64,000 bases of DNA from Sialis fuliginosa (Eukaryota > Arthropoda > Insecta > Megaloptera > Sialidae), in assembly GCA_961205875.1 (NCBI GenBank), contig OY540810.1, forward strand, positions 17,484,001-17,548,000, read 5' to 3'. Shown piece by piece: positions 46,245 to 55,516 of this stretch (its first letter is position 1; every line of letters begins with the position of its first letter). The position numbers and the translations under genes are program-made. The notes beneath the pieces are model-generated. The model was not told the origin of the DNA and did no database searches. It worked only from the letters and a program-made list of their open reading frames with translations.

Positions 46245-47777
46245 CACTCATCTAAACAATTAAAGGAACAAGAATTTAAACATTTTTTTTTGGTGTTTTT
46301 TGAAGTGCTGTATCTTTGTGAAAAATAGTCGTATCGAAATAAAACAAAAAGCATTTTAAAGCGTCAAGATTCTAGTTTTGAGATTTTTTAGCATAATTTT
46401 TTTTGAGTTACGGTTATCGCGCAACCAAAAGAAATTGTGGGACACAAAAATTTTCCAATTTTAAAAATTTTTTTTAAGGGTCCTCGGGCTTGGGAAATTT
46501 TTATTCAGTTAAACCAATGCATTGGTCAGTTAACTTGCTTATTCAGCTTTAATTTGTTTTTTTTTTGGTCTTTCTCAATTTTTTTTCTCCGAGATATCTG
46601 CCTTTAAATGAAAAATGATTCTTTTGTCTTCGATCATCAATATATCAGCAACTAATGATTAAACAGTAAATTTAAGGGCAGTTTTAAAAACTTGAATAAA
46701 TTTCCTACAAGACCCTTTCATGACTTTATTAGAAAAATTTTTTAGTTTACCCTCACCATTAGTGTGAAAAAGTACAAAAAATGACATTTTATGTTCTTTT
46801 AGTAAATCTATCGCTACTTTACAAATATTGATGGGAAGATTAAAAAAAATTCCAAAAAATTAAAAAAATAATTTTTTTTTAAATTTTGAATTTTTTTTTC
46901 AAAATTTTTAAAACATTTCAAGAAACAATACTGACTCATTTTTGACACGATTCGGCTTTTGCGTACCATAATTTTACTCATCTTTAATTAATTGCATTAA
47001 TTAATTCTTTCGCAGCGGGAACCGTACGAAATTGTAAAATAATTTTGTCTCGCATGCTGGAATCGAATTAATACGCAAGCAAAATTTGATCAGTCGGTTC
47101 GGAAAAATGGTTCGATGGATCAATTTCAAAATTTACAAGACTGTTGGGAATACATTAAGCTGTAAAAATACATGGCAACATTAGTCTTCCCATCAATATT
47201 TGTAAAGTAGCGATAGATTTACTAAAAGAACATAAAAGGTCATTTTTTTGTATTTTTTCAAACTAATGGTGAGGGTAAAAAAAAATGTTTTCTAATAAAG
47301 TCATGAAAGGGTCTTGTAGGAAATTTATTCAAGTTTTTAAAACTGCCCTTAAATTTACTATTTAATCATTAGTTGCTGATATATTGATGATCGAAGACAA
47401 AAGAATCATTTTTAATTTAAAGTCAGATATCTCGGCAAAAAAAATTGAGAGAGACCAAAAAAAAAACAAATTAAAGCTGAATAAGCAAGTTAACTGACCA
47501 ATGCATTGGTTTAACTGAAAAAAAATTTCCCAAGCCCGAGGACCCTTAAAAAAAATTTAAAAAATTGGAAAATTTTTGTGTCCCACTATTTCTTTTGATT
47601 GCGCGATAACCGTAACTCAAAAAAAATATGCTAAAAAATCTCAAAACTAGAAAATTGACGCTTTAAAATGCTTTTTGTTTTTTTTCGATACGACCATTTT
47701 TCACAAAGATACAGCACTTCAAAAAACACCCAAAAAAAATGTTTAAATTCTTGTTCCTTTAATTGTTTGGATGAGTG
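46245..47777. mobile_element. Long palindromic element with TA ends, ~600-bp arms
   Basis: Left arm CACTCATCTAAACAATTAAA (46245) is matched by an inverted right arm ending TTTAATTGTTTGGATGAGTG (47777), each next to TA. Arm similarity continues through blocks such as AAGTGCTGTATCTTTGTGAA to about 46850 on the left and from about 47180 on the right. The unique spacer is about 330 bp. A TA target points to the Tc1/mariner group but no transposase remains. Confidence 0.88.
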
Positions 47778-48290
47778 TATATTTATTATCACTGCTCTAG
47801 AATCCCGAGCAAATTCATAATGATTTGACATTTCACAGATAGCGTTAGCTCAGCTTTTGCTTTCGAGCAAATTCTTTATAATACCCGACAGTCATAGTTA
47901 GAATCTTGCTTCTAAATAAGTCCTGATGTATTTTTTTTTAAAAACAATTATTTTGGCATCACAAACAACATGCAAAAAGTACGTGTAGTGAATTATTTAT
48001 TGTCTTAAATTTGTCTAAGGTCACAAAAATCAGTTTTTTTGCGAATATCTCGTTTTTTATTGGTTGTTAATGTTGGTCATTATAAAAATTGTTTAAAAAG
48101 AATTTTTACAAATTTCATGTACGACCAACAGTTTTCAAGATAACGAGCTTTAAATTTTTGATGCGGGGCGCATACTCCACTGTATAGGTACATTGGAGTA
48201 TAAAACAGTAAAAATAGATTTTATGAACACAATAATTCCTTCATAAATGAAAGTTGATACGTAATAAAATATGTAGTTTTATTTCTATAC
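47778..48290. other. Intergenic repeat-like DNA
   Basis: No coding region. Nothing further supported. Confidence 0.35.
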
Positions 48291-48299
48291 TTTAGGAAA

Positions 48300-48620
48300 C
48301 CGATTATCGTAGTCGACCAAGGGATGCAGAGGTAGTTTGGCAGGGGGTTTAAGGAGTAAAAAAGTAATGTTTTTTTCGGATCGAATGAAACTAATTACAA
48401 TCCTCCATACGTGACTGGAGATGAAATATTTAATTTTTTTTTTTTTTTTCATTAGGTACCTATACAAAATCGTAAATATGTACCTATGTATGTTCAAAAC
48501 ACACAATATTTTAAAACGGGTTGAAATATAATATTTTTATTGTTTTGATTTTTATTTATTACATCAACAAAATCGTAAATATCTCGGCTCCTATGCGAAA
48601 TCTTATGATATTTACATTAA
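48300..48620 (-). repeat. Fragments of the 36.2-kb tandem unit
   Basis: GGATCGAATGAAACTAATTA, CAATCCTCCATACGTGAC and TATCTCGGCTCCTATGCGAA are inverted versions of words in the ~170-bp unit at 36170-36600. A poly-T run at about 48435 and other AT tracts divide them. Confidence 0.6.
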
Positions 48621-48805
48621 CGAGCCGGTCTCGGTACAATTCATGCCATTTCGATCACACTTAAGTAAAATATTCTTTGCACTATGCTGTATCGGAGCGA
48701 AATTGGACCGATACCTATGGTGTGAATGATTTCATTGTTTATTGTTTATTTATATTTGATTGGAGCGAGGCCGCACCGAGATCGGCATGATAGCCTCGAT
48801 CGATC

Positions 48806-49012
48806 CTAAAGGTTCACGTATGTTGGTTTTTTTGAGTAATTTTGACATATCAATACATTTGAATACACTCGGAGGTGACTGTCCAAGTATTCTGTATCAA
48901 TGGACACAGAATTTGGATCTCGACTTATTGTTAGTGTATCGACAATCTGTAACTTTTTCCCTGGAACATATACAATTTCGACTTGATACCCGAGCAGTCT
49001 GATCATTAACAC
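48806..49012 (-). pseudogene. Gypsy-type LTR retroelement RNase H scrap
   Basis: On the minus strand the frame has LLGYQVEIVYVPGKKLQIVDTL broken into the typical end of the Ty3/gypsy RNase H domain: a YxPGKxLxIADTLSR-like motif with VDTLTIS in place of ADTLSRA. The rest (DSHLRVYSNVL, then SQ-like QNYSKK) fits the linker that follows. No protease, integrase or LTR was found. It is an old, isolated fragment. Confidence 0.7.
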
Positions 49013-49336
49013 GATAAACCACTAAATATAAATATAACAGTTTTTATTACAGTTCTAAAATAAACGTTACGTATTACCATTGACAAATAAAATATAAAAT
49101 AAATACACAAAAATCAAAAACGTATAAACCCTTACACGACGTTGGTGAGTAATAGGATAAACTATATAGGATCCTCCTTAATGTCGCTTTCTTAATGCAC
49201 GTATTGACGAATTAACTAGCGGACTGCTACTGACTTTGTTCGGCAGCCCGTCATCAACTGTCAATGCCGTAATTTGTACAATTTAATACATCCCCTCTAC
49301 ACGAGCTTATGCAACCCAGAGATAATAAGACAATTA

Positions 49337-49947
49337 GGGTCGCCGCACACGTCCAGTTTTCGTATCAGATTCCTTGACGCGGTTACTGGATCAGGGAACC
49401 TGACAAGCCCCGCACACGTACATTAGGTTTTAATTTGCTCAGTTCAGTAGTGTTAATGAGAAAGACAACATGGATGACGATGACTATTGAGCAAATTGCT
49501 TTTTTACTGTCGCAAGTGAAAAAAAAAGAAAAAAACCTTAGGTCGTAGAGAATAATATTTTAATATATCTCTGAAAGTTGATTAAAAATGAATTTACTTG
49601 TTTTTTCGACATCACTATTATCAATCCCGAATAAAATACCGATAGTATGTCATGTACTCTCCAATAATTACAAATGAAAGACATAACAATTTCGTTTGAA
49701 ACCGTACATACAAACCGTACATGTGCGGAGACCATAGCAAAAGCATGTTAGGTTCCTTGATTAGGTTTTAAACTGGATAAGTCAACCCGATGCATTTTGC
49801 CCGCGTTAGGTTTGTACGCACGGTTTCAATCCTGACCGTACGTGTGCGGCGCTCTATATGTTCCAATGCTATTTCGACCTTCAGGTTCCATGATCGGGTA
49901 ACCGCATCGGGGAACCTGATACGGTAACCAGACGTGTGCGGTCATTC
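49337..49947. mobile_element. PIF/Harbinger-type MITE with TTA duplications
   Basis: TIRs GGGTCGCCGCACACGTC (49337) and GACGTGTGCGGTCATTC (to 49947), about 65 bp of imperfect inverted match, including CGGTTACTGGATCAGGGAAC / GTTCCATGATCGGGTAACCG. TTA flanks both ends (49334-49336 and 49948-49950). An internal ATGGATGACGATGAC may be the relic of a transposase start. It is not closely related to the Harbinger at 34183. Confidence 0.82.
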
Positions 49948-54540: not shown

Positions 54541-54569
54541 ATATCAAGATGGTCATATATATGAATACT

Positions 54570-54570
54570 A

Positions 54571-54598
<28 letters not shown>
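54570..54598. repeat. (TA)n tract
   Basis: TA repeats between the Penelope-like element and the next palindrome. Confidence 0.9.
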
Positions 54599-54601
<3 letters not shown>

Positions 54602-55443
54602 GGGTGAGTCATTTTAATCAACGCAGTCAAATATCTGGAAAAGTAAACGAAATTGAGAAAAACATTTCAAACAAAAGTTGCTTGGTTTCAAGGGGGTCAA
54701 ACAATAATGACCTTGCGGTTGACCTTCAAACCATTTTCAAGGTCAAATCAAGGTCAACTTTGATTTTTTAAATGGAAACCTATATTTTTTATTGCATATT
54801 CGTATTCTACGTGAAAAAATGAGTATCTTTAGTAGGAAATTTTTTTCTTAAAAATGCTTTCTTCTCTTGGTGGAGTGCGCTGTAAAATTTATCAACGAAC
54901 TCAAATATCTGAAAAAAAGTTGCACCTAATAGCTCAAACTACTTTTAGCATTACCCAGAAACAACGGCGTGGACGTAGTAGTTGTATGTTTCTTTTGGGG
55001 TGCTTTTTAAAAGTAAGAGGCAAGAGGACTCACATTAAAAAAGCATCCCAAAGGAAACATACAACTACTACGTCCACGCCGTTGTTTCTGGGTAATGCTA
55101 AAAGTAGTTTGAGCTATTAGGTGCAACTTTTTTTCAGATATTTGAGTTCGTTGATAAATCTTACAGCGCCCTCTACTGAGAGAAGAAAGCATTTTTAAGA
55201 AAATTTTTTCCTACTAAAGATACTCATTTTTTCACGTAGAATACGAATATGCAATAAAAAATATAGGTTTCCATTTCAAAAATCAAAGTTGACCTTGATT
55301 TGACATTGAAAATGGTTTGAAGGTCAACCGCGAGGTCACCATTGTTTGACCCCCTTGAAACCAAGTAACTTTTGTTTCAAACGTTTTTCTCAATTTCGCT
55401 TACTTTTCGAGATAATTGGCTGCGTTGATTAAAATGACTCACC

Positions 55444-55447
<4 letters not shown>
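54599..55447. mobile_element. Foldback MITE, ~420-bp arms, TA-flanked
   Basis: ACAGGGTGAGTCATTTTAAT at 54599 is the inverse complement of the right end, ATTAAAATGACTCACCCTGT to 55447. The arms match almost to the centre near 55020. The ACAGGGTG... ends and the TA context fit the Tc1/mariner group. The 88- and 61-codon ORFs on both strands are the same arm translated. Confidence 0.9.

Positions 55448-55516
<69 letters not shown>
55448..55516. repeat. (TA)n microsatellite, about 35 units
   Basis: An uninterrupted TA run that separates the foldback MITE from a second ACAGGGTGAG end at 55517. Confidence 0.95.

What the first reader, a model, noticed from the sequence alone, without database searches (positions are those of the whole stretch)
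46245..55516. Run of four long inverted-repeat structures in nine kilobases
A TA-flanked palindrome (46245-47777, ~600-bp arms), a second (50550-51884, ~570-bp arms), the Penelope-like element with 795-bp inverted arms (51900-54540) and a foldback MITE (54599-55447, ~420-bp arms) follow one another, the last three separated only by TA tracts. Each could extrude a cruciform or be transcribed into long hairpin RNA, i.e. a natural dsRNA/endo-siRNA or chromosome-fragility locus. Alternatively it is a preferred landing zone for TA-targeting elements.
Basis: partly seen in the sequence, partly recalled or inferred. Interest (0 to 1): 0.7.

Follow-up and report, generated by a model that had tools for sequence, protein, structure and literature searches.

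The report
Penelope palindrome beside three foldback transposons
Four long inverted repeats sit close together because several kinds of jumping gene accept TA-rich DNA; the youngest, a Penelope retroelement, appears to have been copied inward from both ends of its insertion site, and the sister copies that were read follow the same pattern.

Summary
The four inverted repeats are real, with corrected edges. Three belong to dispersed palindromic (foldback) DNA-element families: F1 (46245-47777; TA at 53 of 53 ends), F2 (50325-51891, a ~1.8-kb element missing its right end) and F4 (54599-55448). The fourth, 51900-~54572, is a young Penelope-like retroelement (PLE) insertion whose 795-bp arms are 100% identical. 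TA-directed insertion explains the cluster best; hairpin-RNA or fragile-site roles are untested.

The useful result concerns the PLE. Related copies (99% identical) form head-to-tail arrays (3.56-kb unit) of opposite sense meeting 5'-to-5', PLE 3' ends outward: 12 '+-' and 0 '-+' neighbours in 20 clusters. All 13 insertions read at both ends have one 'short' 3' end and one with the ~35-bp Penelope 'tail'; 25 of 26 ends lie at TA runs. Of 41 tailed ends listed, 27 face a short end, none a tailed one, 14 have no known partner; 2 of 75 short ends face a short end. This fits reverse transcription primed from both nicked target strands at two adjacent RNA start sites. Head-to-head PLEs and tails were known; the one-of-each pattern is the added point. 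The full tailed-end search did not complete.

The parts
46245..47777 (.). F1: palindromic element between TA dinucleotides (Tc1/mariner-type MITE by its TA target), terminus CACTCATCYAAACAATTAAAGGAAC, ~600-bp arms; shorter than the ~1.79-kb copy in L041
   Evidence: 700 first-look candidates, 40 scored; TA at 53 of 53 ends; comparison with L041
50325..51891 (.). F2: palindromic element; terminus TGAGCATTTCCAG at the left; ~230 bp of the right end missing at the (TA)n/PLE junction
   Evidence: (472 first-look candidates, 40 scored)
51900..54572 (-). PLE insertion: two copies of the PLE 3' region head-to-head, both 3' ends outward; short 3' end on the left, tailed 3' end on the right
51900..52694 (-). 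PLE left arm (3' region of the longer copy; PLE sense is minus); joined directly to (TA)n: short end
53746..54540 (+). PLE right arm (shorter copy, PLE sense is plus), 100% identical to the left arm over 795 nt
54541..54572 (+). PLE 'tail': same letters as the start of the next tandem unit (with an ATG) in L070; present only at this end
52787..53758 (-). open 323-aa PLE reading-frame fragment: YVDD, then a GIY-YIG-like region (motif names recalled, read by eye)
   Evidence: no Pfam match at E<=1, one PDB match at E 0.82 of no meaning
52004..52027 (-). hammerhead-like core CTGATGA...GAAA in the left arm; second copy at 54413-54436 (+)
   Evidence: 2 matches, 0.62 expected by chance; with three stems: 0 hits in 222,400 background strand-bases; Rfam gives no hammerhead match
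54573..54598 (.). TA-rich tract between the PLE tail and F4
54599..55448 (.). F4: palindromic element, terminus ACAGGGTGAGTCATTTTAATCAACGCAG, ~420-bp arms, 11-bp spacer
   Evidence: (1295 first-look candidates, 40 scored)
55447..55518 (.). (TA)36 microsatellite; another CAGGGTGAGT follows at its far side

Best explanation
The run is a cluster of transposable elements that all accept TA-rich DNA, not a functional hairpin locus. F1, F2 and F4 are palindromic DNA elements, presumably non-autonomous. The PLE arose by copying from both ends of one target: the endonuclease makes staggered nicks in (TA)n (11- and 14-bp duplications seen in two insertions), each free 3' end primes reverse transcription of PLE RNA, one from the 'short' start site and one from the 'tail' start site a few tens of nt away, and the two antisense cDNAs, running towards each other over part of a unit or several 3.56-kb units, are joined where they end, by microhomology or filler. 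This gives a palindrome with PLE 3' ends outward, one short and one tailed, and arms (nearly) identical at birth. Shown: families, orientation pattern, end pattern, TA flanks, tandem period, arm identity, some junctions. Inferred: that both strands prime, and the order of steps.
For: Dispersed families: (40 candidates scored in each). PLE orientation: 20 clusters from the 40 best-scored of 375 candidates; 13 have more than one match, 12 of 13 contain both orientations; neighbours '+-' 12, '-+' 0, '++' 4, '--' 9; 12 of 13 same-sense 3'-3' distances are 3559-3570, one is 4936. Ends: the 12 clusters with both orientations were read at both outer ends, and a 13th insertion (C10:8.431 Mb) was read as a possible counter-example; 13 of 13 have one short and one tailed end. 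Listed short ends: 75 exact, 0 for the reversed control pattern. Against 41 tailed ends: 26 face a listed short end within 20 kb, one more faces a variant short end, 0 a tailed end, 14 no known partner; of the 75 short ends 26 face a tailed end, 2 a short end (one pair, 19.6 kb apart), 47 none listed. TSDs of 11 and 14 bp in the two interrupted TA targets. The few informative positions agree between the two arms in 5 of 5 insertions compared; 0-1 substitutions in 754-774 nt. Junctions: L076 arms equal within ~2 nt with a TA filler, L075 within ~10 nt with 3-bp homology. In vitro precedent: the Anolis PLE protein cuts and extends both strands, prefers AT-rich DNA and starts RT at two adjacent sites that bound the tail (PMC11167929, abstract and main text read).
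Against: 14 of 41 tailed ends and 47 of 75 short ends have no known partner; the tailed list holds only the 40 best-scored of 456 candidates, and the full tailed-end search did not complete. The 12 insertions were chosen because they showed both orientations; 8 of 20 clusters showed one orientation or one match and their outer letters were not read. One insertion (L070) joins a PLE coding fragment at its left end, not (TA)n. Near-equal arms (6 of 13 junctions within 250 nt modulo the unit, 7 not) could also come from a fold-back step. Arms of different insertions differ by only 0-6 substitutions, so arm identity within an insertion is weak evidence. TSDs are unresolved in the others because the flanks are pure TA. 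PLE identity rests on motifs and architecture; no profile match was obtained and the structure prediction failed.
Confidence: 0.68

Rival explanations
1. Self-priming: one PLE RNA or cDNA folds back at a short palindrome and copies itself, giving a head-to-head hairpin that is then inserted (proposed for rotifer Penelope elements, on an antisense template).
For: L075 and L076 have nearly symmetric centres with loops of 3-7 nt, and L095 arms differ by about 15 nt; the paper argues for self-priming from palindromes at junctions (PMC3846280, passages).
Against: By inference a folded-back copy should have the same 3' start on both sides, yet 13 of 13 insertions have one short and one tailed end, and 7 of 13 junctions have arms that differ by hundreds of nt or show no symmetric junction at the centres tested.
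Confidence: 0.15
2. The cluster is a host-used locus: its arms are transcribed into long hairpin RNA that feeds endo-siRNA or piRNA silencing of these families.
For: Arms of 400-800 bp would form dsRNA if transcribed. [quoted passage not shown]
Against: Each unit is a member of a many-copy family with the same symmetry elsewhere; there are no expression data here either way.
Confidence: 0.1
3. Two independent PLE insertions landed in opposite orientation in the same TA tract.
For: PLE 3' ends of different insertions do face each other roughly 20-55 bp apart at five places in the lists; three were read and hold pure TA.
Against: That gives 3'-to-3' neighbours with TA between them. The head-to-head junctions printed hold no long TA tract between the arms, and '+-' outnumbers '-+' 12 to 0 within the clusters.
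Confidence: 0.04
4. The palindromes are assembly or library hairpin artefacts.
For: Perfect 795-bp arms; such artefacts exist in long-read data (general knowledge).
Against: The two ends of each insertion differ (tail against no tail) and have different flanks, arms are often unequal, and the pattern repeats at 13 insertions.
Confidence: 0.03

Closest known systems
Endonuclease-containing Penelope-like elements (Adineta vaga Pen2a, PMC3846280, passages; Anolis PAc, PMC11167929, main text)
   Different: Here both sides can be multi-unit arrays, the ends lie at (TA)n, and each of the 13 insertions read has one short and one tailed end; both papers call the tail optional.
Galileo of Drosophila (PMC3573991, passages)
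   Same: Long inverted arms with little between them; in F2 the arms of one copy are on the whole more alike than arms of different copies, as for Galileo TIRs (98-100% within a copy).
   Different: Galileo has 7-bp target duplications; F1 shows TA, F2 and F4 TA-rich flanks. No transposase was sought.
MuTAnT (Medicago), and Micron/TAFT, elements targeting TA microsatellites (PMC4486113, passages)
   Same: Foldback structure with (TA)n flanks.
   Different: Plant Mutator-like family with 9-bp duplications at the rare non-TA sites; F2 and F4 superfamily unknown. The PLE reaches the same target with a different enzyme class.
Tc1/mariner MITEs (recalled)
   Same: F1 has TA at both ends in 23 of 23 loci with both ends found.
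   Different: No autonomous partner was sought or found here.

Membership tests
Penelope-like elements (EN+) | Reverse transcriptase with C-terminal GIY-YIG endonuclease | tested here: inconclusive
   323-aa open frame with YVDD and a GIY-YIG-like stretch read by eye; no Pfam hit at E<=1, no useful PDB hit, single-sequence model pLDDT 37
Penelope-like elements (EN+) | Tandem units with pseudo-LTRs | tested here: met
   12 of 13 same-sense 3'-3' distances 3559-3570 bp
Penelope-like elements (EN+) | Inverted copy at the 5' side and tail at one of the inverted ends | tested here: met
Penelope-like elements (EN+) | Target site duplication (8-10 bp in the rotifer passages) | tested here: inconclusive
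   11 bp and 14 bp in 2 of 12; not resolvable in the other 10, mostly pure TA
Penelope-like elements (EN+) | Hammerhead ribozyme motif in the pLTR | tested here: inconclusive
   core plus three possible stems in the window and in a 79% subfamily, 0 background hits; no Rfam match; free folding does not favour it
Penelope-like elements (EN+) | RT grouping with PLE/telomerase RTs in a tree | not tested
   no PLE reference proteins were at hand; the protein search of the own genome did not complete
Tc1/mariner MITE (F1) | TA target duplication | tested here: met
   53 of 53 ends, 23 of 23 loci with both ends found, of 30 loci
Tc1/mariner MITE (F1) | Shared termini with an element that encodes a DDE transposase | not tested
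   no search made; genome search was mostly unavailable
Galileo/Foldback (F2) | 7-bp target duplication | tested here: not met
   in copies with interrupted flanks (L014, L019, L021) the two flanks share no 7-bp repeat

The most novel reading that the evidence does not exclude
In this PLE family both nicked target strands prime reverse transcription on the same RNA molecule, each at its own start site a few tens of nt apart, so that every insertion is an asymmetric palindrome (one short, one tailed end) and the two cDNAs tend to stop at nearby template positions. The tail would then mark which strand was primed second and not be an optional leftover.
Probability: 0.33. Interest if true: 0.7.

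Novelty: new member of a known kind. Interest (0 to 1): 0.5.

Why it matters
How Penelope-like elements insert is still not worked out (PMC11167929 says so); head-to-head copies and tails were known. A one-short/one-tailed pattern in a family with dozens of nearly identical copies turns the in vitro finding that a PLE protein cuts and extends both strands into a prediction that can be tested on insertions in a genome. It also explains why palindromes of different origin pile up side by side in TA-rich DNA, and warns that such runs need not be siRNA or fragile-site loci.

Tried and rejected
Structure prediction of the PLE fragment gave pLDDT 37, so no fold search was made. Rfam at loose thresholds gave only matches below the gathering scores, mostly miRNA models on palindromes and TA tracts. 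The idea that foldback arms are always homogenised was tested. F2: within-copy median 97.2% against 95.7% between copies, arms of one copy are sister tips in 20 of 28, 59 of 293 private variants lie in both arms; but the within-copy arm pair is the best match of both arms in only 11 of 28, and 242 of 599 arm differences recur with the same side in other copies, so homogenisation is partial. F1: sister tips in 5 of 25 (25 of 30 loci had usable arms; within 96.6%, between 95.6%). F4: unclear from two copies. The 28 F2 copies are among those closest to the window copy, not a random sample. Equal PLE arms as a general rule was rejected: 6 of 13 junctions within 250 nt modulo the unit (L075, L076, L070, L093, L094, L095), 7 not (window, L071-L074, and L091 and L092, where no junction lay at the plain centre within 150 nt nor at the two other centres within 80 nt). 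Some arm lengths were worked out by hand from those outputs. Literature searches on novelty: (listings); papers opened: PMC3846280, PMC11167929, PMC3573991, PMC4486113, PMC12910113. Subscription papers on Drosophila Penelope are not held, so the one-of-each pattern may be in print there.

Rows dropped or moved: one search left out two rows (a 71% match and a 57-bp fragment left of L070) and added the window's own right arm; one search left out three of 44 rows (identity 90-91%) and kept one of 99%. On checking, these three are short ends: two coincide with listed short ends and the third (C10:8.431 Mb) was read; it pairs with a tailed end that one search counts as unpaired, hence 27 and 14 in place of 26 and 15. 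In one search the script labels the right end of the C11:6.89-Mb insertion 'short' because its tail differs by one letter from the exact pattern; the tail is visible in the printed letters and, and I count it as tailed. The script failed after printing the end rows; the background was redone.
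Full report
Observation. The window is C2:17,484,001-17,548,000 of an unnamed 392-Mb, 20-contig genome. Edges need correction. F2 (50550-51884 in the finding) is part of a ~1.8-kb palindromic element beginning at 50325; other copies carry a further ~230 bp at each side, and the window copy lacks that part on the right, where (TA)n and the PLE begin. The PLE extends through a ~30-nt tail to about 54572, and F4 is 54599-55448.

F1, F2 and F4. Each is a dispersed family: 700, 472 and 1295 first-look candidates, of which only 40 each were scored. 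F1 has TA before its terminus at 53 of 53 ends and at both ends in 23 of 23 loci where both ends were found, so it behaves as a Tc1/mariner-type MITE. F2 lies in short TA runs (52 ends, median longest run 7.5 nt; random 60-mers 4). Neighbours of F2 copies include further elements: the flanks of L012 form the arms of another palindrome that is 73-74% like F4 over ~110 bp, and L011 abuts another PLE.

Arms of F2. In 28 copies among those nearest the window copy the two arms of one copy are on the whole more alike (median 97.2%) than the same arm in different copies (95.7%); arms of one copy are sister tips in 20 of 28, though they are each other's best match by plain identity in only 11 of 28. 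Variants private to a copy lie in both arms in 59 of 293 cases, more than independent hits should give, and their number does not rise with the number of arm differences (Spearman -0.45). So arms are partly homogenised, perhaps in source copies or on transposition. Against a complete process: 242 of 599 arm differences recur on the same side in other copies. F1 shows sister arms in 5 of 25. Galileo is a published precedent (PMC3573991, passages).

The PLE. The longer copy runs on the minus strand and has an open 323-aa frame with YVDD and a GIY-YIG-like region, read by eye. The shorter copy is the inverted 795-bp 3' region, identical letter for letter. A query of its 3' 1.1 kb found 40 scored copies at 99% or more among 375 candidates, plus six shorter or weaker matches. 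Their order is regular: 20 clusters, 13 with more than one match, 12 of these 13 with both orientations; '+-' 12, '-+' 0; units repeat every 3559-3570 bp in 12 of 13 distances. PLE 3' ends therefore point outward on both sides and the copies meet 5'-to-5'.

Ends. All 13 have one end where TA-rich DNA joins the short 3' terminus and one with the tail. Of the first 24 ends, 23 have a TA run of at least 8 nt within 13 nt; the exception (L070 left) joins a PLE coding fragment; both ends of the 13th are TA-rich. The eight clusters with one orientation were not read. The tail is the start of the next tandem unit and includes an ATG (L070). An exact pattern for the short end has 75 matches and none for the reversed control (the tool warns in general that counts may be lower bounds). 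Set against 41 tailed ends, 26 tailed ends face a listed short end within 20 kb (373 bp to 17.7 kb apart), none faces a tailed end and 15 have no listed partner; reading one of these 15 showed a short partner with a variant end, so 27, 0 and 14. Of the 75 short ends, 26 face a tailed end, 2 a short end (one pair, 19.6 kb apart) and 47 have no listed partner. The tailed list is incomplete (40 of 456 candidates scored), so the unpaired counts cannot be read as single-ended insertions; the near absence of short-short pairs does not depend on that list. Where the TA target is interrupted, duplications of 11 and 14 bp are visible, so TA-rich DNA was there before insertion in those two.

Junctions. 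L076 arms are equal within ~2 nt with TA inserted, L075 within ~10 nt with 3-bp homology, L095 within ~15 nt, L070 26 nt apart modulo the unit, L093 about 173 nt apart over ~7.1 kb, L094 within 248 nt modulo the unit; the window, L071, L072, L073 and L074 are not near equal, and the insertions of L091 and L092 show no symmetric junction at the centres tested. The few informative positions agree between both arms in each of five insertions, but insertions differ so little from one another (0-6 substitutions) that this is weak.

Mechanism. The Anolis PLE protein cuts and extends both strands, prefers AT-rich DNA and begins RT at two adjacent sites that bound the tail (PMC11167929, main text). 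Beside the end pattern this gives the explanation preferred here: staggered nicks in (TA)n, two cDNAs from two start sites, joined where they end. The older proposal, self-priming on an antisense template (PMC3846280, passages), should by inference give the same start on both sides and is disfavoured by 13 of 13. That both cDNAs use one RNA is a bolder reading, suggested by near-equal arms in 6 of 13, not required.

Why four in a row. TA-rich DNA is the shared target. PLE ends of different insertions face each other roughly 20-55 bp apart at five places in the lists; three were read and hold pure TA. C14:4.706-4.713 Mb has F2, PLE and F4 together again. No evidence here bears on dsRNA, siRNA or fragility.

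Noticed in passing
window 8002-9991: A nested set of overlapping inverted repeats (arms up to 545 bp, 89-93%), a further palindromic cluster outside the finding.
   Followed up: no
window 62005-62454 (-), 39407-39916 (+), 29196-29708 (+): Open frames that read like a mariner transposase end, a piggyBac-type transposase fragment and a LINE RNase H region (recognised from memory, not searched).
   Followed up: no
L070 (C2:13911900-13915000), left end near 479: A PLE insertion whose short end is joined to a 281-nt sense PLE coding fragment preceded by (TA)n, suggesting a template switch or insertion into a PLE copy.
   Followed up: partly
L002 3501-4342 and L020 1-661: Further near-perfect inverted repeats beside F2 copies (322 nt 99.7%; 217 nt 99.5%).
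   Followed up: no
window 55519 onwards: A second CAGGGTGAGT terminus starts directly after the (TA)36 tract, so a fifth TA-inserted element may follow F4.
   Followed up: no
C14:4.706-4.713 Mb (L011, L039): F2, a PLE of a 79% subfamily and F4 in the same order within about 6.4 kb at a second place in the genome.
   Followed up: partly
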